64,000 nt of DNA from a virus (IMGVR_UViG_3300042502_001233:83125-147124), one strand, 5' to 3'; shown: positions 1,339 through 37,976, counted from the first letter of the stretch. Notes: a model not told the origin generated them from the sequence alone. Numbers and translations: made by a program.

Positions 1339-1395
1339 GTTTATACCCAATATACTTTGATTTTAGAGTACTGTGAAATTAATTGTGTGTCTGTA

Positions 1396-2247: not shown

Positions 2248-3157
2248 ATTCTTTAATTTTATTAAATAAAACATACTTAAAATTTTTCTTTTTGATATCC
2301 GACTCCCAAAACCTAACCAAATTATAAGATTTGTCTTTAGCTAATTTATTTTTAAATTTATCATTTTCGACATTTATTTGTTGTGTTTCAGTTAATATAT
2401 CACTTTCATTATATTTTATTGGATTAACATGCCAATAATCACCATCAGCTTCTATTAACAAATTAAAATCGATTAGATAAAAATCATAAGTTTTAAATTT
2501 ATTTTCGTCATAATAAACATCATATTGTGTTTCAAATTTAACATTATTATCCATTAATAACTTACCAATTTTAACTTCAATACCGCTTTTTTTCATTTTT
2601 TTTAACCCATCTCTCATTAATTCAAATGACGTTTTACCGTATTTTTCTAAACATATGTTTTCCCTATTTTTTATTTGTTTTTCTAAAGTCAATATACATT
2701 CAACACCATATCGTTTTAAATTACTATTAATTCTTTTGTTATTAGATGTTTCATTAGTCCCCATCCAAAAACCATTATCCTCAAAGAATTTTTCTTGACC
2801 AATTTTTACTTTTTCTTTATGTTCTTCGGTTTCCCATAATTTTTTAACCCTTTCAGAATTCCATTTTTTCCATTCATCAGTATGTTTAATGTTATAAGCT
2901 GGGTTACCTTCTTTAAGATAAAGTTCTTTTTGGTGAGAATCTTTACAAACTCTAGAACAGTATTTTTTACCATTATCTATTTTATTTGGTAATACTTCAA
3001 ACTCTTTATCACATAATAAACAATTAATTTTAACTCTATCAACTTTTAACTTTTTATATCCAATATGTTGACATTCTATTGAACAATAAACTTTATTTTT
3101 AGTTTCTTTTTGACAATTTTTACAGTTATTCATTTCTCTAAATTTTTGTTGTATCAT
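2228..3157 (-). CDS. Vsr-like homing endonuclease with zinc knuckles, inserted in the SbcD gene
   Basis: 309 residues. The N-terminus carries two cysteine clusters, C12xxC15 with C25x3C29, and C46xxC49 with C67x3C71, which look like treble-clef zinc sites for DNA binding. The middle (residues 75-190) is basic and resembles nuclease-associated modular DNA-binding repeats. The C-terminus has a Vsr/PD-(D/E)XK-type core: KTYDFYLIDFNLLIEADGDYWH near residues 225-245, then a basic helix and LVRFWESDI. It sits exactly between the two coding pieces of SbcD and overlaps the downstream one by 20 bases. It is read as a free-standing homing nuclease whose insertion split the gene, as mobE split nrdA in Aeromonas phage Aeh1. 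Confidence 0.8.
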   Translation of the reverse strand: MIQQKFREMNNCKNCQKETKNKVYCSIECQHIGYKKLKVDRVKINCLLCDKEFEVLPNKIDNGKKYCSRVCKDSHQKELYLKEGNPAYNIKHTDEWKKWNSERVKKLWETEEHKEKVKIGQEKFFEDNGFWMGTNETSNNKRINSNLKRYGVECILTLEKQIKNRENICLEKYGKTSFELMRDGLKKMKKSGIEVKIGKLLMDNNVKFETQYDVYYDENKFKTYDFYLIDFNLLIEADGDYWHVNPIKYNESDILTETQQINVENDKFKNKLAKDKSYNLVRFWESDIKKKNFKYVLFNKIKEYGKKEN

Positions 3158-3196
3158 TATTTATTAATAAATACAACAACAAAACTAAAAAGATAA

Positions 3197-3877
3197 TTAT
3201 TCATCTAAAACCCACCCAATTTTTTCATATTCATATAATTCTTCTTCATATATTTCTTTAGTTTCCTTAAAAATTAAAACACCTCTTTTATGGATATCAC
3301 CGCACATAACCATGTCACAACCTTTAAATATATCTAAATTATAACCATGTTCTATTTCGTAACCAATATCTGTAGTTGAACCAACTAATGGACCATGAAA
3401 TAAACCTATATACGTTTTATCTTCACCAAACTGTACTCTAGCTGCTTCAATATCTGGCCTTGAATTACCTTCAAAAATTGAATATACACACCAAACAACG
3501 TTGTCATCCAAATAACATTTAGATTCTTTGAAATAGTTTATTTCTTTGTCTGGAAGGAATTGTACCATTGGTGTGATTGAATCCATACGGTCTTTGTTAT
3601 TCTCTAACAAATCGTGGTTTCCAGCTATCATAACCACTGGGGCTATTTCTTCTAGTTTTCTAAGAAACCACGTACCAAGCAATAATTGCTCGTTTGAAAT
3701 CACAATCTTTTGGTGAACCAAGTCACCAGCCACTACGATTCTAATTTCTTCTCTTTTGTAGTCAACCAATAAATCGGTTAAATCTGCCATAAGCGTTTTA
3801 AACACATCCAAGTACTCATCGTGCATTCGAAAAGTTCTTATGTGTATATCAGCTAAGTGAACTATCTTCTTTATCAT
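3197..3877 (-). CDS. sbcD: SbcD/gp47 recombination nuclease, N-terminal catalytic piece
   Basis: 226 residues with all metallophosphoesterase motifs of Mre11/SbcD in order: LADIHI (residues 8-13), VVAGDLVHQ, MIAGNHDL, LFHGPL and MCGDIHKR (about 191-198). The family continues from here into a conserved P-x-x-x-PSSLIQQNFGE segment, but this product ends 28 residues after GDIHKR with an unusual acidic tail, KEIYEEELYEYEKIGWVLDE. The missing segment is encoded downstream at 2017-2247, beyond an endonuclease gene. SbcD with SbcC/gp46 forms a nuclease that processes DNA ends for recombination-dependent replication. The tail has no intein signature, so reassembly, if it occurs, is probably non-covalent. 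The start overlaps the upstream small gene by 29 bases. Confidence 0.88.
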   Translation of the reverse strand: MIKKIVHLADIHIRTFRMHDEYLDVFKTLMADLTDLLVDYKREEIRIVVAGDLVHQKIVISNEQLLLGTWFLRKLEEIAPVVMIAGNHDLLENNKDRMDSITPMVQFLPDKEINYFKESKCYLDDNVVWCVYSIFEGNSRPDIEAARVQFGEDKTYIGLFHGPLVGSTTDIGYEIEHGYNLDIFKGCDMVMCGDIHKRGVLIFKETKEIYEEELYEYEKIGWVLDE

Positions 3878-4124
3878 TTTCTTCGTTGTATTTGTTTAAT
3901 TTATAAGTGTATTTATCCATAATACCTATTCTATCTAATAATTCTTCTCTATCCATTAATAAAATAGATGCGATGCTTTCATGTAATAAAGCTACAGCGA
4001 TAGCTTTGTCTGTACCATGTTTAATCTCATGAAGCAACGCTTCATGAAATTCATAATAACCATTATGAACTATTTTGTATAATTGTTCGTCGTTAAACGG
4101 TTCGTATAAACTTCTATTATACAT
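3849..4124 (-). CDS. Small protein of unknown function upstream of SbcD
   Basis: 91 residues, probably mostly helical (HEALLHEIKHGTDKAIAVAL, then HESIASILLMDREELLDRIG), ending in a charged tail. It overlaps the preceding nuclease gene by 8 bases and the SbcD piece by 29 bases, which implies translational coupling in one operon. There is no signal peptide, metal motif or membrane segment. I do not recognise the family. The tight packing in a recombination operon suggests an accessory role, by context only. Confidence 0.6.
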   Translation of the reverse strand: MYNRSLYEPFNDEQLYKIVHNGYYEFHEALLHEIKHGTDKAIAVALLHESIASILLMDREELLDRIGIMDKYTYKLNKYNEENDKEDSSLS

Positions 4125-4899
4125 TTTTCATAAGATTATAGTGGTGCATCTCAATAAGTTTTTTGGCCTCATGTTTAAGATACATTATTTGTATTTTTTG
4201 AAATGTCATCGTTGTTTTATCCCAATACCCAATACATATTTGTCTACATTTTCTGTGTGGAAATTCTAACTCATACATGTAAGCATATACACTCAACTGC
4301 AATGTATAAATTGACCATTGACATGCTTGTAAGTGGTCAAATGGTTTAAACAATGTTTCGTTTCCGAATGGGTTAAAGAAGTTGAATTCTCTGTTTGTTT
4401 TCCAATCCCAAACATCAAAAAAAGTGTCATCTATGTCAATAACTAAATCTGACATACCAGCCAACTCATATTGTTCAGCAAACATAATACGTTCTGGCCA
4501 CATTGCAATACCTTCATCTATTTTTAGAGCTTCAAACCCGTCAATAACTTTCTTTTCAAATTGTCCATCTTCATCATCTTTTGGGAAATACCATTTGTTG
4601 GCTAACAAATAACGTTCTACAATGTCGTGAACTTTGGTACCATATATATTGGCTTCGTCGTTAAGCATTTGCCAATAATCTAATATTTGTTGTTGGTTTA
4701 AACCTATATAACGTTCTTGTTTGACTGTGTCTAATTGATTGACAATAGCGGCCGATACAGCCTCAGCGTCAAAGTGTGGTTCGATTGATGTAAGTGTAGT
4801 AGTAACCGACTTGTAAATTTTACCAGTGGTCCTATGATGATATTTGTGTTCTATCGGTTCCAGATATACTGGACCTTCCCATAATTTTGCTTTACTCAT
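4117..4899 (-). CDS. PD-(D/E)XK (RecB/Cas4-type) nuclease
   Basis: 260 residues. Residues 85-95 (GTKVHDIVERYL) match the motif I helix of RecB-type nucleases. LAGMSDLVIDIDDTFFDVWDWKT (about 147-170) supplies the catalytic Asp and the D-x-K pair. Further on, HLQACQWSIYTLQLSVYAYM matches the Q-x6-Y motif that typifies RecB/Cas4/AddB nucleases. The iron-sulfur cysteines of Cas4 are absent. It probably trims DNA ends in phage recombination or replication, in keeping with SbcCD downstream and primase upstream. A host-type promoter lies 19 bases upstream of the ATG, so this gene starts an operon that runs through sbcD. Confidence 0.82.
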   Translation of the reverse strand: MSKAKLWEGPVYLEPIEHKYHHRTTGKIYKSVTTTLTSIEPHFDAEAVSAAIVNQLDTVKQERYIGLNQQQILDYWQMLNDEANIYGTKVHDIVERYLLANKWYFPKDDEDGQFEKKVIDGFEALKIDEGIAMWPERIMFAEQYELAGMSDLVIDIDDTFFDVWDWKTNREFNFFNPFGNETLFKPFDHLQACQWSIYTLQLSVYAYMYELEFPHRKCRQICIGYWDKTTMTFQKIQIMYLKHEAKKLIEMHHYNLMKNV

Positions 4900-4917
4900 T
4901 TATAATATTTTTTAATA

Positions 4918-4948
4918 CAAATATACTACAAAATTGTTTATTTTGCAA
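4918..4948 (-). promoter_or_regulatory. Host-type (Bacteroidota) promoter for the nuclease-sbcD operon
   Basis: Minus strand: TTG, 20 bases, TATATTTG, placed 19 bases before the ATG at 4899. It matches the TTG/TAnnTTTG consensus of Bacteroidota, with the same spacing as the copies near 573 and 41235. Confidence 0.72.
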
Positions 4949-4972
4949 CTTTTATATGAATTATTTACTTGG

Positions 4973-5911
4973 TTAATCTTTAAGTTTATGCGCGGTTTTT
5001 AAAAGTTTAACAATACCTTGGTTACCTAGTCTTTCGTATATCTTAGATGGGTCAAAACCTTCTGGTGGTCTAACTATCCTAACTCTACCTTCCAAATCAT
5101 AATTATCCAACTGCCTATATAGGTTTTGAGCATCTTGATAAGCGTCATCATCCAACACAACAACAACAAAAGACTTGGCTTTTTCTTGTAATAAATCAAA
5201 TAATTTGTCAGAAACATATTTACCCAGTAGAGGTATTGAGTTCGGGGTTACTATATGGTCTGTGACACCTTCAACCAAATAGATTGTTGCGTCCCAATTA
5301 ACTCTACCTTCATTGAAAACTATCTCTTGTTTTTCAGCGTCTGGGTTTAAGTATTTTATTTTTGTATATTTTTTGTCAAACCATCTGGCCACAAAATAGT
5401 TTAAGTTGTCGTCAACATCAAATGATGGAACGACAACTCTATTGTAAAAGTCTCCTTTGATTGTGTATCCTATGTCAAAATCTTTGATTATTTTATCTGT
5501 AATACCACGTTGATATAAATAATCTTTGGCTATTTCTGATTTGTAGTCTTTAAATGTACAGTCAGCTAGTTTCTTATAACCCTCTGGTAGTTTTACAACA
5601 ACTTTCTTCTGTTCTCTGTCTTTAAACTCATCAGGTTTTAATAAGAAATAATCCGCTAAATTTTTTTTGGTACCGTATTTTTTGATTAGTTTTGAAATGG
5701 GTCCATGCATGTGGTTTGTATCGTGACAAACCCAACAGTTATAAACACCTTTGTCGTAATTAAGTTCTAGGTTTCCTTTTCCGTCACCGTTGACCAAACC
5801 TTTTTCAGCTGAACAAGCTGGACAATCAAAAGCGATTTGCCCAGTATCCTCATTATGCTTTCTAGGGTCACCTAAAAATGATTCGAATATGTCTACCAAA
5901 TATAAACTCAT
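4973..5911 (-). CDS. 61: DNA primase (T4 gp61 / DnaG type)
   Basis: 312 residues. The N-terminus has a zinc ribbon: DCPACSAEKG near residue 30 and YNCWVCHD near residue 58. The C-terminal part is a TOPRIM domain, with the catalytic Glu in YLVEGVTDHI (about 212-221) and the metal-binding acidic motif in VVVVLDDDAY (about 250). This zinc ribbon plus TOPRIM layout is that of phage primases that make RNA primers for the lagging strand in partnership with a gp41-type helicase, which is encoded at 35963-37396. A host-type promoter lies directly upstream, overlapping the 3' end of the resolvase gene. Length is close to T4 gp61 (342). Confidence 0.87.
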   Translation of the reverse strand: MSLYLVDIFESFLGDPRKHNEDTGQIAFDCPACSAEKGLVNGDGKGNLELNYDKGVYNCWVCHDTNHMHGPISKLIKKYGTKKNLADYFLLKPDEFKDREQKKVVVKLPEGYKKLADCTFKDYKSEIAKDYLYQRGITDKIIKDFDIGYTIKGDFYNRVVVPSFDVDDNLNYFVARWFDKKYTKIKYLNPDAEKQEIVFNEGRVNWDATIYLVEGVTDHIVTPNSIPLLGKYVSDKLFDLLQEKAKSFVVVVLDDDAYQDAQNLYRQLDNYDLEGRVRIVRPPEGFDPSKIYERLGNQGIVKLLKTAHKLKD

Positions 5912-5916
5912 TTGGC

Positions 5917-5946
5917 AAAGATACTACTTTTTTAGGAAACTTGCAA
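5917..5946 (-). promoter_or_regulatory. Host-type (Bacteroidota) promoter for primase
   Basis: Minus strand: TTG, 19 bases, TATCTTTG, ending only about six bases before the primase ATG. The -33 part lies inside the last codons of the resolvase gene. So short a leader would make the mRNA nearly leaderless. Confidence 0.62.
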
Positions 5947-6579
5947 ATTACGTTTATTAATATACGCTAAACCACAAACATAAGCATCTGAAGTATCGAA
6001 TGTTTCCTTTTTAAGTTTGTTGTTTTTGTCATAGAACCAAGTTACTTGTGGTTCCAATTCAGCGACTTTTTCCCAAAGAACATATTTCTTATCCACATCA
6101 AATGGATAAGCGCCAAACAACACAGGAGCGTTTTTAGCGATTTGTTTTTCATTTAGGTCTGTTCCATCCTTTTTCTTGGTACGAACCGCCATAAGGTCTG
6201 GAAATGCGTATTTACGTGCATCGTATGATGATATGAACTCTGGTACAATTCCAAGAGTATCGTAAACGGATTTTGAAATCATTCCGTTGAAACGTAAAAG
6301 GGTTGCGATAGTATAAACGTTATTAGATTGTAAAAGCGGTTCTTCAATGATTACATTGGTGATGCCGAAATCAGCATAGTTAGATAAGAATTCTTTTTCG
6401 AAAATTTCTACTTTTCTAAATAATTCTTCCATTTTGCTTTCTGGTTTTGGTTTAACCTTAGGGGATACGTGGTGTAACAATTTCAATTCAAGTTTGTCAC
6501 CCAAGTCTTGAAATAATGCAATACCGATGGTTGAAGTTGACACGTCTAAAGCTAATAAAAATTCTGGTTCTTTTTCCAT
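5932..6579 (-). CDS. RuvC-like Holliday junction resolvase (RNase H fold)
   Basis: 215 residues with the acidic motifs of RuvC-family nucleases: LDVSTSTIGIALF (residues 11-23) carrying the first Asp, NVIIEEPLLQ (about 94-103) with the catalytic Glu, and FDTSDAYVCGLAY near the C-terminus with the last Asp. Such enzymes cut four-way junctions and release branched replicative DNA before packaging. T4 uses the unrelated gp49, so a RuvC-type enzyme here is a replacement. It is followed closely by primase, whose promoter overlaps its 3' end. No host-type promoter was seen upstream, so it may be transcribed with the tail genes to its right. Confidence 0.82.
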   Translation of the reverse strand: MEKEPEFLLALDVSTSTIGIALFQDLGDKLELKLLHHVSPKVKPKPESKMEELFRKVEIFEKEFLSNYADFGITNVIIEEPLLQSNNVYTIATLLRFNGMISKSVYDTLGIVPEFISSYDARKYAFPDLMAVRTKKKDGTDLNEKQIAKNAPVLFGAYPFDVDKKYVLWEKVAELEPQVTWFYDKNNKLKKETFDTSDAYVCGLAYINKRNLQVS

Positions 6580-6627
6580 ATTAAATTTTTATTACTAATT
6601 TAGACGTGTTTTTCAAAAAATAAAGTG

Positions 6628-7830
6628 TTACATAGTAATTTTTATCGATAAAGCTAAAAATTCATTAACATTTTTGGTAATGTGTCTATCCGTTTTAGCA
6701 ACAGCGATAAGATTTCCAATGTCATCATACAACCCAACTTCACTAATTCTAGGTGTATTTCCAGAGCTAAAAGTTTTGTTAGTTGTTGAAGCGAACTCAC
6801 CTCTATCTGCAATACAGTTGATTATTTGAAATACGTTTGTTGATACACTGTCTAAAGTTAATGTTGTTGCAGTTGAAGCTGATGTTGTAAAATTATTTAC
6901 TATTGTTGGATGTGTGATTACTATAAAACCTTTATCCAAATATGCTAAACCTACTATCGTATCACCAGTTTGACCAATATTAGTGTTGGTTTGCGCGTTA
7001 AATGTTTGTTTACCATTTAAACTAAATGGTCTGTTAAGTCCGTAACCTGTAGCCCAACTTAATGAAGGAACACCACCGTTAGGTCTTAATATATTGTCAG
7101 AAAATAACATAGCAATATTTTGACCAAATTGTTTTGTAGTAACGTTTGTTTCGGATATTGTATTATCTAAAACATTCAAAGCTTGTTGATTGCTTTCAAA
7201 GGTAGAATACAAAGTATATGTACCACCACTAGTTGGTAATTCTAATTTAACTGTTTTACCGTCTATACATTCACCAAATGTTGAATTGTTAATTGCTACA
7301 ACCAATATTTTATTTGTTGCAACACCACTATATGATGTATTTGAATAACCACCAAAATTTGTTGTTGTCGCTGTAAATAAATTGAAATCCGATGTTGTTA
7401 TTGGTAAACCAAAAGAACTGAACAAATTAACCATTTTATCACTAGTGTAATTTAAACTATTTATCACATTAAAACTAAGGTTTGTACCGCTAATTGTTGT
7501 TAAACCATTAGGTAATGTTTCCGAAAGAATGTTTACTGATTGTGACGATACTGGTTTGGTAATCATCCCACTAGTATTTAAAATTAATACAGACTTTAAG
7601 GCTACAGCTGATGCAGTGCTATTGCTTGTTGTGTTACCAAAACCTATGTTACCATTAATAGCTGGCACTTCACCAGTGTTTAACAACAAAGATGTTTGGT
7701 AATTTGCGTCTGAATCACCTAAACTAAAAGTTTTGATTAATGAATTATTGGTAGACACCATTCTTTGTCTACCTATTGGTGTTAACTTTGCTGTTAAACT
7801 AAGCGTTGTCGCTGTACTATTATATCCCAT
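6628..7830 (-). CDS. Tail or baseplate protein with collar-fibre-like ends (paralogue of the 708-residue protein)
   Basis: 400 residues, Ser/Thr/Asn-rich with little charge, as in fibre-like virion proteins. The N-terminus (LTAKLTPIGRQRM, then FSLGDSDANY) matches the start of the neighbouring 708-residue protein (IKLTQTGREQL, then WAIGDSELNY). The C-terminus (SEVGLYDDIGNLIAVAKTD) matches the end of the same protein (SEVGIYDSSKNLVCIGKL). Both ends resemble the P2-type tail-collar fibre layout, where a T-x-x-G start and an EIGLFD-x-x-G-x-LIAVG end are typical. The pair therefore looks like diverged duplicates with different middles, which suits parts contacting different partners or receptors. 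The HNH gene at 7861-8466 separates them. Confidence 0.65.
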   Translation of the reverse strand: MGYNSTATTLSLTAKLTPIGRQRMVSTNNSLIKTFSLGDSDANYQTSLLLNTGEVPAINGNIGFGNTTSNSTASAVALKSVLILNTSGMITKPVSSQSVNILSETLPNGLTTISGTNLSFNVINSLNYTSDKMVNLFSSFGLPITTSDFNLFTATTTNFGGYSNTSYSGVATNKILVVAINNSTFGECIDGKTVKLELPTSGGTYTLYSTFESNQQALNVLDNTISETNVTTKQFGQNIAMLFSDNILRPNGGVPSLSWATGYGLNRPFSLNGKQTFNAQTNTNIGQTGDTIVGLAYLDKGFIVITHPTIVNNFTTSASTATTLTLDSVSTNVFQIINCIADRGEFASTTNKTFSSGNTPRISEVGLYDDIGNLIAVAKTDRHITKNVNEFLALSIKITM

Positions 7831-7860
7831 TTTATATTTTATTAAAAATCCATACTTAAT

Positions 7861-28968: not shown

Positions 28969-30789
28969 TTATTTAACTCTAACCATGATATCTGTGTTTG
29001 GAAATTTTATTTCAAACATTGATGTTGGTTCACCGAAAATAGTGTAGTCACCACTGATGTCCACTTGTCTAGTTTCTGTATCTAAATAAGGTTGTGAAAT
29101 CTCATTTAAACTATATTTACCGCTACCAACTTTATTATACACTCTAAGGTCGATAACATTAAGTACACCACCAACATTGTTTATTGTTTCAATTAACGGT
29201 GAAAGATAAATATTATCACCCATATCAAATTTATTGATATCCATATAATCTTTAACATTTGTAATTACTTCTGTAATAATTTGCGATTGTGGCATTTTTT
29301 TGTCAACATATAAATCAATCTCAAAACCTAAATTGATTATCTTACCGTTACTAACTGAAATATAATCGTTTAACATTCTGTAATCTGACAAATATGTTGC
29401 TATGTTTTCTCTAAGAGCGCTAGTTGATTCATTACTTAATTTACTTGAAGCGTCTAACCCCATAACATAAACTTTTACCTTGTTTTGTTCTTCAAAAACA
29501 CCACATCTGAATGGTACACCGAATTGACCTGGCATTAGACCTATTCTAGATTGATAATCTTTGATTGTTACAGCTCTATTTTGTGCAGAAAAATTATATT
29601 TAACCATATATCTTATTTCTTCAACACTTGGTCCATTTCTACCCCCTAACGCTGGAAACGCATTATTGACTACTAATGAATTTCTAACAGCAGCATTTAT
29701 TGATTGATTACTACCATTTACACTCATATTAATAATACCAACATTTCTTAAAACGTTTGGTCCAACGTTTGTGTCCGAACCACCACCAATCCTATATTTA
29801 ATATACATAGTTGTGTTAGCTGTTGGTGTTTCCCCTAATGAACTATTGTTGATAATATTACCAATTTGATTAACCAAAGGAATATTTGTATCAAAATCAG
29901 AAAGACTTGATGTATCTTTGGTACCTGCTCCAAATATTAATTTTGTGAAACCTAAATCTGTATATTCACTAATAAATTTTTTTGTTATTGTTACCCATTT
30001 TCCTGGTTTTACACCAGAATTATCGGTTACCCTAGAATAATCTTCAATAAAAACTTTATTCTCAGCCAAAGCATCAACTTCGAACCATCTGTTGTCAAAA
30101 TTATAAAATTGACTAAATGAAGGTTCTGTGTTAAAGTTTGTACCATCAAGCGTAATAACCGATTCTATTGAAATAACATTATTTTCTGGTAATACTATTT
30201 CGAAAAACGGTCTAACATCATTGATATTTATTACTTTTTTATAGGTTCTTGAGTAACCGTTAGTTACTATTTCTCTTTTGGTTATTGTATAGTTTGACAA
30301 CACACCGTTAGAATTAAAATTTGGTAAAATAATTCTGTTTGGTATGCCGTTTATATTGAATGGATTACTAAAATCAATATCGTTTGTGGTTTCAAAAATT
30401 TTACCACCACCAGATACTTGCGAACCAGCTCTAAGTAGTGGAGCATAAGATATATCAAAAGTATCACCTAAAACTGGGAGTGTAACGCTAAAATCAACTA
30501 TTGTTACACTTGGACGTTTTCCTGGTATTTTTAACCCAAAGGTTCTAGCCATTGACAATACTGATTTTCTTTCTTTTGCGTAATCAATTTGTGTTTCTTG
30601 GAACATTCTATCGGTGTTATACGATAACATGTCTCCAACGGCCGCATTTAGTTCTAACAACATCATACCGACTGATGCGTCATTAAAATCGCTAAGCACC
30701 TCTGGGTAATATTGTTTTACCATATCTACCAACCCAGCTCTAATATCGGCATAGTTTCTAGATGCGTAATTTATTCCTGTATTTGCCAT
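28969..30789 (-). CDS. 6: Baseplate wedge protein (T4 gp6 / baseplate J type)
   Basis: 606 residues, near the 660 of T4 gp6. The N-terminal 80 residues (NYADIRAGLVDMVKQYYPEV, DFNDASVGMMLLELNA, then DMLSYNTDRMFQETQI) match the start of gp6/baseplate J proteins, where these helices form the inner ring of the wedge. The middle is beta-rich, and the C-terminal 150 residues include VEEIRYMVKYNFSAQNRAVT and KDYQ, another hallmark of the family. It is followed by the tail genes and preceded at eight bases by gp25, the same pairing as in most contractile-tail systems. Confidence 0.88.
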   Translation of the reverse strand: MANTGINYASRNYADIRAGLVDMVKQYYPEVLSDFNDASVGMMLLELNAAVGDMLSYNTDRMFQETQIDYAKERKSVLSMARTFGLKIPGKRPSVTIVDFSVTLPVLGDTFDISYAPLLRAGSQVSGGGKIFETTNDIDFSNPFNINGIPNRIILPNFNSNGVLSNYTITKREIVTNGYSRTYKKVININDVRPFFEIVLPENNVISIESVITLDGTNFNTEPSFSQFYNFDNRWFEVDALAENKVFIEDYSRVTDNSGVKPGKWVTITKKFISEYTDLGFTKLIFGAGTKDTSSLSDFDTNIPLVNQIGNIINNSSLGETPTANTTMYIKYRIGGGSDTNVGPNVLRNVGIINMSVNGSNQSINAAVRNSLVVNNAFPALGGRNGPSVEEIRYMVKYNFSAQNRAVTIKDYQSRIGLMPGQFGVPFRCGVFEEQNKVKVYVMGLDASSKLSNESTSALRENIATYLSDYRMLNDYISVSNGKIINLGFEIDLYVDKKMPQSQIITEVITNVKDYMDINKFDMGDNIYLSPLIETINNVGGVLNVIDLRVYNKVGSGKYSLNEISQPYLDTETRQVDISGDYTIFGEPTSMFEIKFPNTDIMVRVK

Positions 30790-30796
30790 AATAAAA

Positions 30797-31183
30797 TTAT
30801 AAATTTATTGTTAAAATGTCTGATGATTCAAAAACTCCATCAGTTATTGTGTATTGTATTGTTACAACAACAGCGTATTCGTTATCTGGTGACTCCTCTA
30901 TTAGTAAATCATCCATCTGAAGATTAGGTAAGTATTTTTGAATTTCGTTGCTTATATCGGTTTTAATCGCTTCAAACGTAATACCGTCTTCAGGTTCAAA
31001 AATGAATTTTAATAAATCTGTCCCAAAATCTGGTAAATATAATCTCTGACCTTTTCTGGTTAATAATAAATGAAGTAAATCAGCTTTAATTGCTTCGTTG
31101 TCGGTGTTGTTTAAATCTAAGAAAAATCCTTGTCTACTATCTTTAAATGGGAAATTAATATTTATGAATCTACCTGTTGCCAT
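30797..31183 (-). CDS. 25: Baseplate wedge protein (T4 gp25 type)
   Basis: 128 residues, matching the GPW/gp25 family over its length: INFPFKDSRQGFFLDLNNTD, AIKADLLHLLLTRKGQRLY and LPDFGTDLLKFIFEP (residues 40-62), then a C-terminal beta segment. gp25 is the sheath-like wedge component that starts sheath assembly on the baseplate, bound to gp6, whose gene follows directly. A weak variant of the AGATATTTAT element (ATATTTAT, about 31195-31205) lies upstream, and the nrdA terminator lies to its right, so gp25 begins the left tail operon. Confidence 0.9.
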   Translation of the reverse strand: MATGRFININFPFKDSRQGFFLDLNNTDNEAIKADLLHLLLTRKGQRLYLPDFGTDLLKFIFEPEDGITFEAIKTDISNEIQKYLPNLQMDDLLIEESPDNEYAVVVTIQYTITDGVFESSDILTINL

Positions 31184-31245
31184 ATTGTTCTTTATTTGAT
31201 AAATATTATAATAAAGTATTTTTATAAGTAAATATGTGAAATAAA

Positions 31246-31272
31246 AAAAGGGTCCTTATTTAGGACCCTTTT
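31246..31272 (-). terminator. Hairpin terminator after nrdA
   Basis: Stem GGGTCC/GGACCC with loop TTATTTA, extended by A-tracts pairing with T-tracts on both sides, so it can work in both directions. It lies 26 bases past the stop of the nrdA C-terminal gene and separates the nucleotide-metabolism operon from the gp25/gp6 operon. Confidence 0.85.
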
Positions 31273-31297
31273 AAATAAATAAAATGAAAAATGAAAA

Positions 31298-32395
31298 TTA
31301 AGTTGAGCAACCGAAACATTCAAACTGGCTATCTTTTGGTTTTTCAGGTTGATTTGCAATTTGGCTACTAGCTAGTTTTGAATTTGCTTCTAATTTTGAT
31401 TTTGTTCTAGTATAATATACACCAGTCTTTAGACCACCTTTCCAAGCATACATAAGTGCACTAGCTATTTTACCGTATTTTGCATCAGAATGATATACGT
31501 TTAATGATTGTGATTGGTCAACATATTTGTTTCTGATGATTGATAAATCTAACAATACTCTTTGAGAAATTTCCCAAACATCTTTGTATCTAAATCTTAT
31601 TTCTTCTGGTATTTCCACAATGTTTTGGATACTACCTTGGTTTTTAATGACTTTGTCAATAATAGTTGAAGTCCAAAGATTATTTTCAATTAGTTCATTA
31701 ACCAAATATTTGTTAACAACCAAAAACTCACCTTGACCTACTCTTCTTGTAAATAAGTTAGCTGTGGCTGGTTCAAAAGATTCAAATACACCTAACAAAA
31801 TTGCTGAAGACGCTGTTGGCATCAATCCTAACAATAAACTGTTGTACATTGGAATTGCTTCTCCTTCTGCTTTTGGTGACCACCCTTCAATATATGTTTC
31901 ACCTTTTGAATAACGACTGCCTTCCCACGCTGGATAGTTTTCACCTTTTTCTTCAGCCAATAACATAGATTCAATAACAGCTGTTTTATACATTGTTTCG
32001 AATATATCGTTATTCCATTGTTTAGCTTCTTCACTTTCAAAAGCAATTTTCTTTTTAGCAAAGAAATCAGCCAACCCAGCAACACCAATAGCCAAAGCTC
32101 TTTGGTCCATTCCAGCTTTCTCACTCCAACTGTCACTCCATTTGTTTTTGTCGATTACTTGGTTAAGCGCTCTAACCAAAACTCTAGTTGTCTGTGCAAT
32201 TGTTTCCAATGTATCGTGTTCGGCCAAATTAACTGATGCCAACGTACATTGTGGTGTGTATTTTGGTTTAGACGCTTGCATTACCTCAATACAATTGTGC
32301 ACCAATATATCATTAGCGAAAAAATTATGATTATCTTTTATTGTTAAATCATAAACTGGTAACTTTGTTTCTATTTTTTTTATTTTAATCCCCAT
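31298..32395 (-). CDS. nrdA: Ribonucleotide reductase large subunit, C-terminal part, led by a split-intein C fragment
   Basis: 365 residues. Residues 1-34 are the C-terminal intein fragment: YDLTIKDNHNFFANDILVHN ends in the block F/G pattern with the terminal His-Asn. The extein starts with CIEVMQASKPKY, where the Cys is the +1 splicing nucleophile and also the thiyl-radical cysteine of class I reductases (E. coli Cys439, in SNLC-x-E). PQCTLASVNL carries the second redox cysteine (E. coli Cys462), and the C-terminus ends FECFGCST, the CxxC that exchanges electrons with thioredoxin or glutaredoxin. Spliced to the 387-residue N-extein from 33494-34975 it gives a 718-residue enzyme. Its ATG follows the endonuclease stop by one base, implying translational coupling. 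Confidence 0.92.
   Translation of the reverse strand: MGIKIKKIETKLPVYDLTIKDNHNFFANDILVHNCIEVMQASKPKYTPQCTLASVNLAEHDTLETIAQTTRVLVRALNQVIDKNKWSDSWSEKAGMDQRALAIGVAGLADFFAKKKIAFESEEAKQWNNDIFETMYKTAVIESMLLAEEKGENYPAWEGSRYSKGETYIEGWSPKAEGEAIPMYNSLLLGLMPTASSAILLGVFESFEPATANLFTRRVGQGEFLVVNKYLVNELIENNLWTSTIIDKVIKNQGSIQNIVEIPEEIRFRYKDVWEISQRVLLDLSIIRNKYVDQSQSLNVYHSDAKYGKIASALMYAWKGGLKTGVYYTRTKSKLEANSKLASSQIANQPEKPKDSQFECFGCST
32294..32395 (-). other. Split intein, C-terminal fragment (34 residues)
   Basis: Encodes MGIKIKKIETKLPVYDLTIK and then DNHNFFANDILVHN. The NFFAND-x-LVHN ending is the same as in the fast phage split intein NrdJ-1 described from metagenomic fractured genes. The start is basic (GIKIKK), which suits pairing with the acidic N fragment. 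The +1 extein residue is Cys. Confidence 0.92.
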
Positions 32396-32396
32396 A

Positions 32397-33437
32397 TTAA
32401 TTTATTATTTCATTTATATTTGTTAATATTTTTTGTAGATAAATGTATTTTATATTATTTTCACTACAATATTTTTTAGCCGCTTTAATTTTCATTTCTT
32501 CATTTATTTTTCCTTTTTCACCTCTAATAAACCCTTTAATTTCTAATAATATTTTATGACCTTCATATTCAATAAGAAAATCTGGCAAATAAAGAGTACC
32601 ATCTTCTTTTTGTATATAAAACGATTCATAACTATATTTAATTCCATTTAGTTCTAAAAATTCTATTGTCTTTAACTCCCAAGAACTTCTATATCTAACA
32701 ATAGTTTTATTTAAACAATTTTTAACTTTAATAAAACCAGTTTTAAAAAACTTTGTTTTACCCATATTTTCATTTCTAACAATACTAATACTTGATATTA
32801 TGGACATCATTTCTGGATAAATTTTTTCCACATTTTCATCAGTTATTACAACATTTTTAAGTTTATCTCTAAAATTCAAATACGTTGATTCATCTAAATA
32901 TTTATCAGATTTTAAAAATTTTTTAAGTTTTTTTATTTTAAAGTCTTTTGATTTTCTATTATTAGAATTAATTAATTTATATAATTCTTTTATTTCACTA
33001 TCTGTCTTATATAAAACATCTATTTTTTTATTTCTTAAAACCTTTATCTTAAAATCAATACTAGAATTTTGTTTTCTTTTTGTTTCTCTAAAATTATCAC
33101 CTCTATTAATACCCTTCATTTTAATCTTCATATTTTCTGAATGTTCTGGTCTTAATTTATTTCTAAAACTAGAACCTTTCATAAAATTAGTTAAATTATC
33201 AGGCCAACCAAATCTACTACCTTTCCATATTTTTAAATTATCGTTTTTAGAATGTTTATTTTTAAAATCATTAAAAGTTAAAATATTATCTAGATATAAG
33301 TTTTTTAAAGCTTTGTATTTTTCATCATTACCATTTGTTATTTTTGTAATATAATTTATTAATTCAATTTCAAATAAATTAATAAAACATTCGTTATTTA
33401 TTAAATCTTTTAATTTTGTTTGTTTTTTTATTATCAT
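32397..33437 (-). CDS. PD-(D/E)XK homing-type endonuclease between the split-intein halves
   Basis: 346 residues, very Lys/Asn-rich and AT-rich. Residues 1-230 are basic, with a short modular DNA-binding-like segment (SSFRNKLRPEHSENMKIKMKG, about residues 88-108). The C-terminal domain has the core of phage PD-(D/E)XK homing nucleases: YRSSWELKTIEFLELNGI, LYLPDFLIEYEGHKILLEIK (catalytic Asp and E-x-K, about 285-305), then KKYCSENNIKYIYLQ. It is a separate gene placed precisely between the intein N and C genes, one base ahead of the latter. An AGATATTTAT element 15 bases upstream gives it its own probable promoter. This arrangement matches the fractured genes with split inteins reported from environmental phages. 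Confidence 0.85.
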   Translation of the reverse strand: MIIKKQTKLKDLINNECFINLFEIELINYITKITNGNDEKYKALKNLYLDNILTFNDFKNKHSKNDNLKIWKGSRFGWPDNLTNFMKGSSFRNKLRPEHSENMKIKMKGINRGDNFRETKRKQNSSIDFKIKVLRNKKIDVLYKTDSEIKELYKLINSNNRKSKDFKIKKLKKFLKSDKYLDESTYLNFRDKLKNVVITDENVEKIYPEMMSIISSISIVRNENMGKTKFFKTGFIKVKNCLNKTIVRYRSSWELKTIEFLELNGIKYSYESFYIQKEDGTLYLPDFLIEYEGHKILLEIKGFIRGEKGKINEEMKIKAAKKYCSENNIKYIYLQKILTNINEIIN

Positions 33438-33451
33438 AATCAGTTTTTCTA

Positions 33452-33461
33452 ATAAATATCT
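33452..33461 (-). promoter_or_regulatory. AGATATTTAT element upstream of the endonuclease inside nrdA
   Basis: Exact copy on the minus strand, followed by TAGAAAAAC, 15 bases upstream of the endonuclease ATG. It would let the nuclease and the nrdA C-terminal gene be transcribed separately from the nrdA N-terminal gene. Confidence 0.5.
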
Positions 33462-33493
33462 AAAATTATTATAAAAACCAATTTATGTATAGG

Positions 33494-34975
33494 TTATTGT
33501 AAAATTTTTAATATATCTGTTTCAAATAAATCTTTAGCCATTACATACCCTCTATTAATAGTATAAATTTGATGTTCTGGGGTACAAATTATCTTTTTAT
33601 TTGATTCATAATCTGTTATCTCTAACACGTCAGCATTTTTGTTTGTCATAGCAGAAGCTAGTAACTCTTTATATTCAACAACATTGTTTTCAATATTAAA
33701 AGATTTTACCAAAATATTTTTATTTTCTTTAAATAATTCATTTAATGTTTTAATATCAGTTCTATGTTCTTCACCTTCTAAAATTATATCAATCAACGAA
33801 TCTTCTGAGATACATAAGTTTGATTGTTTAATAGGGCCTATGTTATCTTGCATGTTACGTTTGTTCGCGTTATCTTTGAACATTACGTAAGGTCTACCAC
33901 TTTCAACTTGTGATTTAACAATAGCATCAAAAATATCTTTAGGGTTAACTTTTTTACCCAACCCTAAATCAACAGCTTTTTGGTATTCAGCGTTGAATTT
34001 CTCACCATGTAAATTATATAACGGTTTTAAACCAGCTTTTTTAATGTCGTTAGGACAGAACAAATACCAATCCTCACCTTTCTCCAATTTTTCCATAAAC
34101 AAGTCGTTTACGATAATTGAAGTAAACAAATCTTTTGTTCTTAATTCAGCAGAACCAATAGGTAATGTTAATTCTAAGAAATCTATGATATCTCTATGCC
34201 ATAATGACAAATACAATGCACAACTTCCAGAACGAGAACCTTGTTTGTAAAACCTCATTTTAGCTTGCACCATATCAGCTAATCTAACAACACCACCAGC
34301 ATTACCTTGAAAAGACTCTACAATGCTTTCTTTACTACGAAGTGGGTCAATTAATAATCCAATACCAGAACCTTCTTTAGATGCCGAAGAAATCTTCTTA
34401 AGGGTTTCTTCGATACCTTCAAATGAATCATCTTCTAAGTGTGTAAGGTTACAGCTAATCATACCGTTTCTTTTAGGTATACCAGCGTTTGTATACGTAG
34501 GTGTGGCAAAGTTACCTCTTTTAGATTTTAATTCTTCTAATAATTCTTCTCTGTCAGCTTCATTATCTTCATGTAAATGCATAGCTACTCTTTCGTACAT
34601 ACATGAAGGTAATTCTAATGGAGTTTTCTTTTCATCTCTCATTGAGTATTTACTCAAAAAAGTTGTAGCGGCAAAGAAGTCGTAGGTTAAATCTACTGGT
34701 TGTAATTCTTTACCTATTAATTTTGATTGGCGACTTAATAAAATACGACCACCCAGCAATGAATAGTCTGGGTGTTGTATAATTTTATCAGCAGCTTTGA
34801 AAGCGATAATCTCGTCGATTTCAGTTGTTGTGATGTTATCCGTAATCAATGGAATAACCTCTTGGAACAAAACGTCAGAATCAATTTTCAACCCTTTGGC
34901 TTGTGTTTTGATTCTCGTTAAAATTTTGTTAGGCGTAAAAGCCTGTGTCGATTTGTCTCTTTTTTGTATTTTCAT
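33494..34975 (-). CDS. nrdA: Ribonucleotide reductase large subunit, N-terminal part, with a split-intein N fragment
   Basis: 493 residues: 387 of reductase plus 106 of intein. The N-terminus is an ATP-cone-like regulatory domain (KRDKSTQAFTPNKILTRIKT, residues 4-23). MISCNLTHLEDDS holds the first redox cysteine (E. coli Cys225). The reductase part ends NIGPIKQSNL, exactly before the catalytic cysteine, and the next residue is the intein Cys1. The intein N fragment includes the block B motif CTPEHQIYT. Reductase makes dNTPs for phage replication; the small subunit gene lies 13 bases upstream. Without trans-splicing neither part would be active, so splicing is expected. Confidence 0.92.
   Translation of the reverse strand: MKIQKRDKSTQAFTPNKILTRIKTQAKGLKIDSDVLFQEVIPLITDNITTTEIDEIIAFKAADKIIQHPDYSLLGGRILLSRQSKLIGKELQPVDLTYDFFAATTFLSKYSMRDEKKTPLELPSCMYERVAMHLHEDNEADREELLEELKSKRGNFATPTYTNAGIPKRNGMISCNLTHLEDDSFEGIEETLKKISSASKEGSGIGLLIDPLRSKESIVESFQGNAGGVVRLADMVQAKMRFYKQGSRSGSCALYLSLWHRDIIDFLELTLPIGSAELRTKDLFTSIIVNDLFMEKLEKGEDWYLFCPNDIKKAGLKPLYNLHGEKFNAEYQKAVDLGLGKKVNPKDIFDAIVKSQVESGRPYVMFKDNANKRNMQDNIGPIKQSNLCISEDSLIDIILEGEEHRTDIKTLNELFKENKNILVKSFNIENNVVEYKELLASAMTNKNADVLEITDYESNKKIICTPEHQIYTINRGYVMAKDLFETDILKILQ
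33497..33814 (-). other. Split intein, N-terminal fragment (106 residues)
   Basis: Starts with Cys1 (CISEDSLIDIILEGEEHRTD) and has the block B signature CTPEHQIYT near its end. It stops at DILKILQ without a C-terminal intein part, which is on the gene at 31298-32395. The acidic start region contrasts with the basic C fragment. A block structure like NrdJ-1 is seen, but the residues differ. Confidence 0.9.
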
Positions 34976-34988
34976 ATTTATATTTTAA

Positions 34989-35942
34989 TTAGAAGTCTTC
35001 ATCAAACATACCATCAGTAGTTGTAGGTATTTCAACTCTTGTGTATTCACCATCTCTTTTCTCAAAGAAATTGTTTTTTGCCGATAAACCAATTCTGGCC
35101 ATGTAATCCAACGGGTTTGTTACGTTGAATTCTAAATCACAACCAAAATCGTTAAGAACGATATCTGTTACGTATTGTACATAACGAACCATATCATCTT
35201 TGGTCATACCTTGTAAACCATCTGGCATGCTGTCTTCAACAAAAACCTTTTCAATTTCATAACACCCTAAGATGATATTTCTTAATTCTTCTTTTGAAAG
35301 TTTATAATCATCTTTCAAATAATTTTTGTATAAGTTAAGTGCAAACTCATAATGGAATGTTTCATCTCTAAGGATTAATTCATTCATACCACCCAATCCA
35401 GGCATTTTATTCTTGCTTCTAAACCAAAACACACCAGAGAATACACTAGCAAATGAAATCCCTTCAACACAAGCAAAAGCCACAAGTCTGTGACCAAAAG
35501 ATGGGTGATGAATCCAATCTTCAGCCCATGAAGCTTTTTTAGCAACCGCTTGGTTGTTTTCCATGGAATTAAATAATTCATCTCTTTCGATAAGGTTTTT
35601 TATGTATGTTTCAATCAATAAAGAATAACCATTCGCATGAACTTGTTCGATAAATGTTTGATGTCCATAGAAGTATTGTGCTTCTAATAATTCAACTTCA
35701 TTTAAGAAGTTTGTTGCTAAGTTATCAATAACCAAACCATCTGATATAGCAAAAAATGCTAAAATATTTTTTAGATAAATTTTTTCAGCATCTTTCAACC
35801 CATCAAAATCATCCTTACTTAAATCTATTTCTTCCGCAACCCATGTTTGGGCTTCGGCTTTTTTATACATTTGCCACAAGTCATTATGTATGACTGGGAA
35901 AATGGAATACCTTTTTTTTAGTGTACTGTCTTTTAAATACAT
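34989..35942 (-). CDS. nrdB: Ribonucleotide reductase small subunit (class Ia)
   Basis: 317 residues with the di-iron/tyrosyl radical ligands: an acidic ligand in AEEIDLSKDDFDGL, the E-x-x-H-x-x-x-Y pattern in FIEQVHANGYSLLIE (Glu and His ligands, radical Tyr three residues on), Glu near LIERDELFN, and DETFHYEFALNL with the last Glu/His pair. The length is lower than E. coli NrdB (376), as is usual for phage. It lies 13 bases before nrdA and about 20 bases after the helicase gene in one operon. It supplies the radical passed to the active-site cysteine of the spliced large subunit. Confidence 0.93.
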   Translation of the reverse strand: MYLKDSTLKKRYSIFPVIHNDLWQMYKKAEAQTWVAEEIDLSKDDFDGLKDAEKIYLKNILAFFAISDGLVIDNLATNFLNEVELLEAQYFYGHQTFIEQVHANGYSLLIETYIKNLIERDELFNSMENNQAVAKKASWAEDWIHHPSFGHRLVAFACVEGISFASVFSGVFWFRSKNKMPGLGGMNELILRDETFHYEFALNLYKNYLKDDYKLSKEELRNIILGCYEIEKVFVEDSMPDGLQGMTKDDMVRYVQYVTDIVLNDFGCDLEFNVTNPLDYMARIGLSAKNNFFEKRDGEYTRVEIPTTTDGMFDEDF

Positions 35943-35962
35943 TTTGTTAATTTTTTTATTTG

Positions 35963-37396
35963 TTATTCTTCTGTTAATTTTATTGAATTAAGCATATCCG
36001 TACTCAATATATTAGTTCGAGCACCCATAACCTCATTAATTCTTTTTTGACTAAATTCTGCTTTGTCTTGTTTGTGTTCACTATTGGTTCTAGCTCCTTT
36101 GCTATCCCCCATATCAATTTGAATACTAGCGTTATCAAATCTGATATCTGTAAAAACAACACCATCTTTACCAAAACGAGATTTAAGAATAGCCATAGTC
36201 GCTGTTCCGTCCTCTTTTTGGTCTAGTGTTTTGGCGATTGACACAATAAAGTGACCAATTTGCCCTTTTTTAATAGAACCACCCATTTGATTAGCATGTA
36301 CTACGTCAGCACCAATAGATGTTCTATTACCTTGTACTGCGGTCCAACCAGCGATATCTAGCTCTGACAACAAACTTTCGTACTGTCTCATTACACTACC
36401 TTCTCCAGCGTTTATATCATCAAATTTTCTTGATGGTTCAACACAATCAATATAGTCCAACAACACCATATCTGGTTTAAAACCTTGTGCTGTTAATTTT
36501 CTGATGTATTGTCTAATCACTGGCATAGTTGTACCATCACTTGAAAACTTTTTAAGTTTTAACCCACCTTTTTTAGCTTTGATTTCAGCATCCATTTTGG
36601 CCGCCATTTCATAAATCTCTTCTTTGTGTAAAGACAAACTATTCAAGTCGTGGTTTGACCAACAAGATAAATGTTTTCTTTGAATTACCTTAGGGTTGTC
36701 TTCAAAAAAGATTTGTAAAACTTTATAACCCATGTTAACCGCTGTATTGGCTAATTTTGTCATCATGGTTGTCTTACCAACACCAAACGGTGCTAATATA
36801 ACACCTAATTCTGTTTTTGATAAACCACCATCCATAATTTCATCTAACCCTTTAATACCAGTTGGGATTGGTTTTCTGAAATCGTCTATAAGAACGTCTT
36901 TAATGTTGTCAAAGATATCCATACCATCATCTTTCATATCACCGTGTTCCAAAGCTTTACGAAGCTTTGACTCACATTCGTGATAATCATTGATATCACC
37001 TCTATCAATGATTTTAGAAATCTCTTCGATTGTTTTCTTAACTTCTTTGTACTTACAAAAATTCATAGCGATTTCTTGTATTTTTAAAGAATCGTTTAAA
37101 TCACTTTCTTCTATTTTTCTAAGTTGTCTACCAATTTGTTTAAGAACCATATCTGATTTAATTCCATCATATAATCTAATTTCTAAACTTGGTATATCTA
37201 GGTTAACTTCATCAATAGTTTTAGCATCTTTAATAGCTGCTACAATAGTTTTTAGAGCTGGGTCTTTAAAATAGTTTGGACTTACAATGTCCAAAATTGA
37301 ATTAGCAAATTTTCTATCGCTAAGTATTTGCGCTATCAGCTTAATCTGATACGTATCCCCTAAATATGAAAAATCGCTCGTGTCTACTCTAATCAT
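35963..37396 (-). CDS. 41: Replicative DNA helicase (T4 gp41 / DnaB type)
   Basis: 477 residues, the same size as T4 gp41 (475). The N-terminal 150 residues are helical (QIKLIAQILSDRKFANSILD). The RecA-type motor has Walker A APFGVGKTTM (about residues 199-208), Walker B MVLLDYID (about 306-313) and a downstream QGNRTSIGADVV sensor-like segment. DnaB-type hexamers open the fork with the gp61-like primase encoded at 4973-5911. A 12-base-pair hairpin between this gene and the 171-residue gene upstream may limit readthrough. No separate promoter was seen. Confidence 0.92.
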   Translation of the reverse strand: MIRVDTSDFSYLGDTYQIKLIAQILSDRKFANSILDIVSPNYFKDPALKTIVAAIKDAKTIDEVNLDIPSLEIRLYDGIKSDMVLKQIGRQLRKIEESDLNDSLKIQEIAMNFCKYKEVKKTIEEISKIIDRGDINDYHECESKLRKALEHGDMKDDGMDIFDNIKDVLIDDFRKPIPTGIKGLDEIMDGGLSKTELGVILAPFGVGKTTMMTKLANTAVNMGYKVLQIFFEDNPKVIQRKHLSCWSNHDLNSLSLHKEEIYEMAAKMDAEIKAKKGGLKLKKFSSDGTTMPVIRQYIRKLTAQGFKPDMVLLDYIDCVEPSRKFDDINAGEGSVMRQYESLLSELDIAGWTAVQGNRTSIGADVVHANQMGGSIKKGQIGHFIVSIAKTLDQKEDGTATMAILKSRFGKDGVVFTDIRFDNASIQIDMGDSKGARTNSEHKQDKAEFSQKRINEVMGARTNILSTDMLNSIKLTEE

Positions 37397-37440
37397 TTTT
37401 ACCCTTATCTTATTTTTAAAAACTTTGTTATTAATAAATA

Positions 37441-37471
37441 TGATAAAGTAGTATCAACTACTACTTTATCA
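37441..37471 (-). terminator. 12-base-pair hairpin between the 171-residue gene and helicase
   Basis: Perfect inverted repeat TGATAAAGTAGT/ACTACTTTATCA around a 7-base loop. It includes the stop codon of the 171-residue gene, and the following minus-strand bases (TATTTATTAATAA) are only partly U-rich, so it may be a weak terminator, an attenuator or an RNA-stabilising end. Confidence 0.5.
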
Positions 37472-37976
37472 AAAAATCTTTTTGAGATTTTTCCCAAACC
37501 TCTGTTTTACTGTCAATCGTGTATTTTTTTAAACTTAAATATTGTCTAATTTCACTCATAATCTCTGGAATTATTTCTCTAACATCAACCGCATATCTAA
37601 TTTTTGGTTGAAACAGATTTCCACTGAATTCAGATTTAGCTACAGTACGTTCATCCACTTTAATTTCGAATTGGAAATTGTCTTTCTTGTCAGAACCATT
37701 TCTAGCCGAATCTTCGTTTTGTAAGAAATAAGGATTGTAAGTATCCCATAAATAGGTTATTGATTTTCTCTTCAAGTGTCTTGGTATGATACCTTGAGAA
37801 CTGTAATCACCATTATTTACACCAGTTATAGCGTTCATAAGGTCTTTTAATTCTATAGATTTTAATGAATCTTCATTAAAATCATAGATGTTGAAGTAAC
37901 GTTGACATATAATGTTTTCGTTAATGTAAAGTACGAATTGAAATCTCAATTCTTCATTTTTAATGTATTCACTCAT
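37461..37976 (-). CDS. Protein of unknown function in the replication operon
   Basis: 171 residues starting MSEYIKNEELRFQFVLYINE. It has mixed alpha/beta composition with a DVREIIPEIMSEIRQYLSLK helix near the C-terminus and no enzyme motif, signal peptide or membrane segment. It sits between the FEN-like exonuclease (five bases away) and the helicase, with its stop codon in a strong hairpin. In T4 this neighbourhood contains small replication accessory proteins, but I cannot match this one to gp59, gp40 or another known protein. Confidence 0.6.
   Translation of the reverse strand: MSEYIKNEELRFQFVLYINENIICQRYFNIYDFNEDSLKSIELKDLMNAITGVNNGDYSSQGIIPRHLKRKSITYLWDTYNPYFLQNEDSARNGSDKKDNFQFEIKVDERTVAKSEFSGNLFQPKIRYAVDVREIIPEIMSEIRQYLSLKKYTIDSKTEVWEKSQKDFLIK

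What the first reader, a model, noticed from the sequence alone, without database searches (positions are those of the whole stretch)
31298..34975. Ribonucleotide reductase made by trans-splicing of a split intein, with an endonuclease gene between the halves
Seen: the upstream gene ends in reductase sequence QSNL directly before intein Cys1 and contains CTPEHQIYT. The downstream gene begins with a 34-residue intein C fragment ending NFFANDILVHN and resumes at CIEVMQ. Between them is a complete PD-(D/E)XK endonuclease gene. Known: fractured genes with split inteins and free-standing nucleases were reported from environmental phages, and the fast intein NrdJ-1 has a closely similar C-terminal motif. 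The cut lies exactly before the thiyl-radical cysteine, so that cysteine is both +1 splicing nucleophile and catalytic residue. Inference: dNTP synthesis in infection depends on splicing.
Basis: partly seen in the sequence, partly recalled or inferred. Interest (0 to 1): 0.9.

Follow-up and report, generated by a model that had tools for sequence, protein, structure and literature searches.

The report
Phage reductase rebuilt by split intein
A giant phage's DNA-building-block enzyme is encoded as two separate proteins that almost certainly stitch themselves together with a split intein exactly at the enzyme's radical-carrying cysteine, with a homing-endonuclease gene lying between the halves; this is a clear new example of a known but little-tested kind of selfish element.

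Summary
In a 362-kb phage record, nrdA is split into two genes: 33494-34975 (387-residue N-extein plus 106-residue IntN) and 31298-32395 (34-residue IntC plus 331-residue C-extein), with a 346-aa nuclease gene (32397-33437) between them. The joined intein matches solved NrdJ-1 at E = 3.6e-21. Splicing would give a 718-residue NrdA joined at Leu|Cys; that Cys aligns with human RRM1 Cys429 (E. coli Cys439), the thiyl-radical residue. Near relatives (99% aa) carry an uninterrupted nrdA at exactly this point. In a 71-sequence tree, nine occupied alleles sit singly among 62 empty ones, so the insert is mobile. I found 71 distinct related inserts: 61 before the radical Cys, 10 one codon later, all with Cys+1, although close empty relatives have Ile at the later position. 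This argues that splicing is under selection. The nuclease is PD-(D/E)XK of the T7-endonuclease-I/TnsA kind, not Vsr-like. The arrangement is the 'fractured gene' reported from metagenomes in 2009: a new member of a known kind. That dNTP synthesis depends on splicing is untested. More unusual: this phage carries at least three further fractured genes, and one relative's nrdA has three inteins and three polypeptides.

The parts
33815..34975 (-). nrdA N-extein (residues 1-387): ATP cone, all-alpha domain and first half of the RNR barrel, ending KQSNL
   Evidence: PF03477, PF00317, PF02867; alignment to human RRM1 up to SNLC
33497..33814 (-). Split-intein N fragment (106 aa), Cys1 at 33812-33814, block B CTPEHQIYT
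   Evidence: TIGR01445 25.6 bits over cut-off 24.5; NrdJ-1 8ubs E=2.7e-13 with P0001; C1 and TPxH invariant in 7 relatives
33438..33483 (-). Predicted RNA hairpin ending at the nuclease start codon (possible translational control)
   Evidence: MFE -9.7 kcal/mol, z -2.5 here; same position z -11.1 in L155 and -4.0 in L006; 33 of 59 related inserts z < -3. Weak for the window on its own
32397..33437 (-). Free-standing putative homing endonuclease (346 aa); C-terminal PD-(D/E)XK domain about residues 233-346 with E254, P285-D286, E299-x-K301
   Evidence: PF05367 2.3e-5, PF08722 2.2e-5, both just below gathering; catalytic residues invariant in 9 relatives; domain pLDDT about 90; TnsA/Bax1 among best fold matches, E 3-7e-3
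32294..32395 (-). Split-intein C fragment (34 aa), blocks F and G, ending in catalytic His-Asn
   Evidence: TIGR01443 35.3 bits, cut-off 15.6; NrdJ-1 alignment HNFFANDILVH
31298..32293 (-). nrdA C-extein (331 aa); first codon 32291-32293 is the thiyl-radical Cys and the +1 splicing nucleophile; ends FECFGCST
   Evidence: PF02867 204-523; aligned to human RRM1 427-745
34989..35942 (-). nrdB, small RNR subunit, intact neighbour
   Evidence: PF00268 8.2e-80

Best explanation
This is a mobile 'fractured gene' element in nrdA. Shown by sequence: two precursors, NrdA-N::IntN and IntC::NrdA-C, with complete intein catalytic residues, and a complete nuclease gene between them at a site that is empty in close relatives. 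Inferred chemistry: IntN and IntC associate and fold; Cys1 attacks the Leu-Cys1 bond (N-to-S shift); the thioester moves to Cys+1, which is the RNR radical cysteine; Asn34 cyclises and releases IntC; an S-to-N shift gives a seamless 718-residue NrdA (...QSNLCIEVMQ...) that works with the adjacent NrdB. Inferred mobility: the PD-(D/E)XK nuclease cuts intein-less nrdA alleles around the near-invariant active-site codons during co-infection, and repair copies in the whole insert. The radical-cysteine codon is a good home because it already supplies the +1 nucleophile and cannot be mutated away.
For: Intein identity. Junction residue equals RRM1 Cys429. Exact empty site in relatives: L007 has 99% aa identity in both exteins and about 95-96% DNA identity in the flanks, and contiguous SNL|CIEVM. 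Scattered occupancy: nine occupied alleles need nine separate changes on starred branches among 62 empty ones. The same insert with the same nuclease family occurs in L006, L155, L156-L159 and, with another nuclease, in the cultured Yersinia phage TG1. All 61 site-A inserts keep Cys+1 and Cys-x-Glu. In the shifted site-B inserts position 440 is always Cys, whereas 58 of 62 empty relatives have Ile, which is expected only if the +1 nucleophile is needed. dN/dS is 0.11-0.19 for IntN and 0.19-0.34 for the nuclease.
Against: No experiment shows splicing, cutting or homing. No co-conversion footprint was found in the flanks against L007. Synonymous divergence in the dN/dS comparisons is near saturation, so those ratios are rough. 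The nuclease matches Pfam families only below gathering thresholds and fold matches have E above 1e-3.
Confidence: 0.93

Rival explanations
1. Genes-in-pieces without splicing: the two polypeptides associate non-covalently into an active RNR, as in Aeromonas phage Aeh1, and the intein pieces are vestigial tails.
For: Aeh1 NrdA split by mobE is fully active as two peptides (PMC2988022; PMC3653736), and the general arrangement is alike.
Against: Here both tails are a complete intein with Cys1, TPxH, HN and Cys+1, conserved across 61 inserts with dN/dS well below 1. Every shifted insert has Cys at 440. An unspliced C half would keep the radical Cys behind a 34-residue tail.
Confidence: 0.04
2. 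The insert is removed at RNA level as a nuclease-bearing intron.
For: Many phage nrdA/nrdB genes carry group I introns with nucleases (PMC3653736; PMC7344957).
Against: No Rfam intron match on either strand. The empty-site junction coincides with codons bounding intein blocks; the N half has its own stop and the C half its own start, as in L155 and L006.
Confidence: 0.01
3. A decaying or mis-assembled nrdA.
For: The gene is in pieces; only one other contig overlaps it at 100% (L004/L085).
Against: RNR domains and C-terminal cysteines intact; same layout in independent contigs and a cultured phage.
Confidence: 0.01
4. The split is also used as a control switch (an addition to the best explanation, not exclusive of it): RNR becomes active only when both halves are made and spliced, and the C half, starting 1 nt after the nuclease stop, is tied to nuclease expression behind a hairpin.
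For: Hairpin directly before the nuclease start in the window, L155 and L006 and in most related inserts; TATAAATA in 11 of 50 upstream stretches against 1.6 expected; nuclease stop and IntC start nearly touch; T4 nucleases are held back by such hairpins until late promoters fire (PMC2988022).
Against: RNR is normally needed early; the hairpin is weak in the window and it lacks TATAAATA; scattered occupancy shows phages do without the element.
Confidence: 0.08

Closest known systems
Fractured genes with split inteins (Dassa et al. 2009, NAR 37:2560; paper not held, content from own knowledge and from PMC3653736)
   Same: Conserved DNA-metabolism enzyme broken by a split intein with a free-standing endonuclease gene between the halves; environmental phages; nrdA among the hosts (7 nrdA, 2 nrdJ in ocean metagenomes per PMC3653736)
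   Different: Nuclease here is T7-endonuclease-I/TnsA-like PD-(D/E)XK, not the Vsr-related family that, from memory, was found in half of the 2009 loci; genome context and empty alleles are available here
NrdJ-1 split intein
   Same: Closest solved intein (8ubs, E 3.6e-21); similar split position (about 105 N residues); same HNFFANDILVH block; same active-site loop of an RNR
   Different: Class II NrdJ host (from its name and own knowledge); junction NPC|SEI lies after the catalytic Cys and uses Ser+1 (PMC13123727); here the junction lies before it and uses Cys+1
Aeromonas phage Aeh1 split nrdA (mobE)
   Same: Nuclease gene breaks phage nrdA in two
   Different: No intein; two chains stay separate (PMC2988022)
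cis inteins with LAGLIDADG nuclease in phage NrdA (e.g. ICP1, PMC10448857; L074 here)
   Same: Same gene; L074 has the same site before the radical Cys
   Different: Single contiguous gene, nuclease inside the intein
Pseudomonas jumbo phage MIJ3 split PolB intein (PMC6892783)
   Same: Phage split intein with a nuclease gene between the halves
   Different: DNA polymerase host, HNH nuclease, different intein blocks

Membership tests
Intein (protein-splicing domain) | Nucleophile at residue 1 and block B TxxH in the N fragment | tested here: met
   Cys1, CTPEH; TIGR01445 over cut-off; invariant in 7 relatives
Intein (protein-splicing domain) | Block F/G with terminal His-Asn and Cys/Ser/Thr at +1 | tested here: met
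   NHNFFANDILVHN|C; TIGR01443 35.3 bits
Intein (protein-splicing domain) | Demonstrated splicing | not testable with these tools
   Needs co-expression and mass spectrometry
Fractured gene (split intein + free-standing endonuclease) | Conserved enzyme interrupted, halves bearing IntN and IntC, continuous in relatives | tested here: met
   PF02867 halves; empty alleles
Fractured gene (split intein + free-standing endonuclease) | Separate endonuclease ORF between the halves | tested here: met
   32397-33437; PD-(D/E)XK residues invariant
Vsr-related homing endonuclease family of Dassa 2009 | Vsr-like (EDxHD) nuclease core | tested here: not met
   E-PD-ExK pattern aligned with T7 endonuclease I; TnsA/Bax1 fold matches, no Vsr among the 50 listed
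NrdJ-1 allele | Insertion after the catalytic Cys with Ser+1 | tested here: not met
   Class I NrdA, insertion before the Cys, Cys+1; NrdJ-1 exteins from PMC13123727
Homing endonuclease | Scattered occupancy of a fixed site | tested here: met
   Nine isolated occupied alleles, nine changes forced
Homing endonuclease | Cuts the empty allele | not testable with these tools
   Needs purified protein and target DNA
Group I/II intron | Catalytic RNA core | tested here: not met
   No Rfam intron match in 30500-37500

The most novel reading that the evidence does not exclude
Splitting of nrdA at the radical cysteine has become a post-translational timer of phage dNTP synthesis: the C half is coupled to a hairpin-controlled, late-expressed nuclease, so RNR forms only when both halves are made and spliced; and in some relatives nrdA is built from three polypeptides by several orthogonal splicing reactions at catalytic residues.
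Probability: 0.08. Interest if true: 0.8.

Novelty: new member of a known kind. Interest (0 to 1): 0.5.

Why it matters
It supplies a natural test of fractured genes: near-identical phages with and without the element, a nine-event scatter on a tree, and natural +1 substitutions that track occupancy. It points to new candidate fast split inteins for protein ligation (61 Cys+1 alleles at one site), and shows that the radical cysteine of ribonucleotide reductase is a recurrent landing site for selfish elements. The cultured Yersinia phage TG1 makes the question directly testable.

Tried and rejected
Co-conversion footprint around the insert: mismatch density near the junction is not clearly different from elsewhere; not used as evidence. 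Late promoter TATAAATA in the window's own hairpin: absent. Searching phage records with the nuclease protein: no match. First nuclease profile including distant L132 gave poor patterns. Structure with 3 sequences was poor (pLDDT 62); 9 sequences gave a usable C-terminal domain. Intron in Rfam: none. Dassa 2009 full text not held. Intein scan of GTDB genomes gave mostly weaker hits in MAGs, not followed.

Full report
OBSERVATION. On the minus strand nrdB (34989-35942) is followed by an nrdA 5' half (33494-34975), a 346-aa ORF (32397-33437) and an nrdA 3' half (31298-32395). The 5' half contains ATP cone, all-alpha domain and the first part of the barrel (PF02867 2-213) and the 3' half the rest (204-523). 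The 5' half ends with 106 residues that match intein N domains and the 3' half begins with 34 residues that match intein C domains. Joined, these match solved NrdJ-1 at E = 3.6e-21, with gp41-1-like inteins next. The exteins sum to 718 residues. Every sequence detail in the finding is correct.

THE JUNCTION. Alignment to human RRM1 puts the Cys at the junction on Cys429, from both halves; by established knowledge that is E. coli Cys439, the thiyl-radical residue. The N precursor carries intein Cys1 in that place and the C precursor carries the real one as +1 residue. NrdJ-1, by contrast, splices NPC|SEI (PMC13123727), one codon further on and with Ser+1.

EMPTY SITES. Scans of IMG/VR with both halves gave about 120 usable loci. 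At this point most have an uninterrupted gene. L007 shares 99% of residues and about 95-96% of flanking DNA with the window and reads straight through SNL-CIEVM. Among 74 distinct flanks from the other contigs, 65 are empty and nine occupied; the occupied ones fall into three kinds: the window's kind (L006); a split intein one codon later (SNLC|C...HN|CEI) with a GIY-YIG nuclease, or in L005 no nuclease but still two genes; and a contiguous LAGLIDADG intein at the window's site (L074). On a tree of 71 exteins (quick method) the nine occupied alleles, window included, lie singly among 62 empty ones, and starred branches force nine changes. The element is therefore mobile or repeatedly lost; with a nuclease inside, homing is the economical reading (inference).

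IS SPLICING UNDER SELECTION? After removing duplicates and adding the above, 71 distinct inserts were classified: 61 at the window's site, all with Cys at +1 followed by x-Glu, and 10 one codon later, all with Cys at +1. In the window's own NrdA clade that later position is Ile in 58 of 62 empty alleles and Cys in one, so Cys there accompanies the intein. This is difficult to explain unless the +1 nucleophile is used; the Cys may travel with the insert, but the six close cases are separate events on the tree. dN/dS (Nei-Gojobori, rough because dS is high) is 0.11-0.19 for IntN and 0.19-0.34 for the nuclease, lowest in the catalytic domain.

THE NUCLEASE. PF05367 (T7 endonuclease I) and PF08722 (TnsA N) match just below their thresholds; the only PDB sequence match is T7 endonuclease I, E 0.7. 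In nine relatives E254, P285-D286, E299 and K301 are invariant, in line with T7 endonuclease I's catalytic residues as aligned. The C-terminal domain is predicted with pLDDT about 90; the best fold matches are mostly PD-(D/E)XK enzymes, among them TnsA and Bax1, E 3-7e-3. A KLRPEHSENMKIKMKG stretch resembles NUMOD3; this is by eye and unconfirmed for the window protein. Other inserts at the same site carry GIY-YIG (17 of 49 scanned match PF01541) or HNH (3 of 49) nucleases, so different nucleases have used the same split-intein niche.

CONTROL ELEMENTS. A hairpin ends at the nuclease start codon in the window (z -2.5), L155 (z -11.1) and L006 (z -4.0); 33 of 59 related inserts have z below -3, not all independent. 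TATAAATA occurs in 11 of 50 upstream stretches against 1.6 expected, though not in the window. This is the hairpin-plus-late-promoter arrangement described for T4 I-TevI, segB and Aeh1 mobE (PMC2988022). The C half starts 1 nt after the nuclease stop.

GENOME. The 362,018-bp record has one nrdA place and no nrdD. It is not certified complete. It holds at least six further inteins: fractured RNA-ligase-like, gp46/SbcC-like and ClpB-like genes, each with a separate probable nuclease between the halves, and contiguous inteins in terminase, DNA polymerase and a glycosyltransferase-like gene.

COMPARISON. This meets every tested defining feature of a fractured gene as summarised in PMC3653736 and known to me from Dassa et al. 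2009. It is not the NrdJ-1 allele and its nuclease is not Vsr-like. A cultured phage, Yersinia phage TG1, has the same layout at the same codon, annotated as two RNR genes and a homing endonuclease. What remains unshown is splicing, homing and any dependence of dNTP supply on splicing.

Noticed in passing
L127 (IMGVR 3300002307_002134), nrdA 981-7849: One nrdA carries three inteins: a contiguous LAGLIDADG intein at MIS|C..HN|CNLTHL (Cys225-equivalent), a split intein next to the radical Cys with GIY-YIG-type nuclease, and a split intein at PTAS|C..HN|SAILL with another nuclease; NrdA would be made from three polypeptides.
   Followed up: partly
L014:5001-10612: nrdA fractured twice (radical-Cys site and PTAS|S site): three nrdA pieces plus two nuclease genes; L062, L129, L130 have only the second fracture.
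   Followed up: partly
L143:4856-7380 (phage record about 24.9-27.4 kb): Same phage: RNA-ligase-like gene fractured in its KLDG motif by a split intein (..LEKLDG.. / ..GILVHN|SLIQ) with a nuclease having a Vsr-like EVNGDFWH motif between.
   Followed up: partly
L144:3577-7683 (phage record about 79.6-83.7 kb; N half reaches window 1-558, minus strand): Same phage: gp46/SbcC-like ATPase fractured at its Walker A motif (GGK|CVRAD / VSHN|TTLT), unusually short N intein piece (about 28 aa), Vsr-like nuclease between.
   Followed up: partly
L146:2261-7594 (phage record about 234.3-239.6 kb): Same phage: ClpB-like AAA+ gene fractured at Walker A (GVGK|CICGD / LSHN|TMLAK), short N intein piece, nuclease plus an extra ORF between.
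   Followed up: partly
L145:5597-8596; L147:939-5774; L148:3428-5578: Same phage: contiguous inteins in terminase large subunit (LAGLIDADG), a DNA polymerase and a glycosyltransferase-like gene.
   Followed up: no
L132:2915-6026: Class II NrdJ fractured before its catalytic Cys (GTNP|C..HN|CGEI) with an intein C piece 68% identical to the window's and a PD-(D/E)XK nuclease: same niche across RNR classes.
   Followed up: partly
L005:5001-7584 and L163, L184, L200, L205, L215, L231: Split inteins with the nuclease gene lost or reduced (insert about 400-490 bp) yet still two genes: apparent end stage of fracturing.
   Followed up: partly
L123 nrdA: Intein-free gene with Cys at position 440 (SNLCCEIL), where relatives have Ile: possible scar of a lost intein.
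   Followed up: no
L058:492-2222: Neighbouring DnaB-like helicase gene apparently fractured by a split intein (FANDIYTHN|SAINSTIVESDQMGG) with a DUF559-like nuclease upstream.
   Followed up: no
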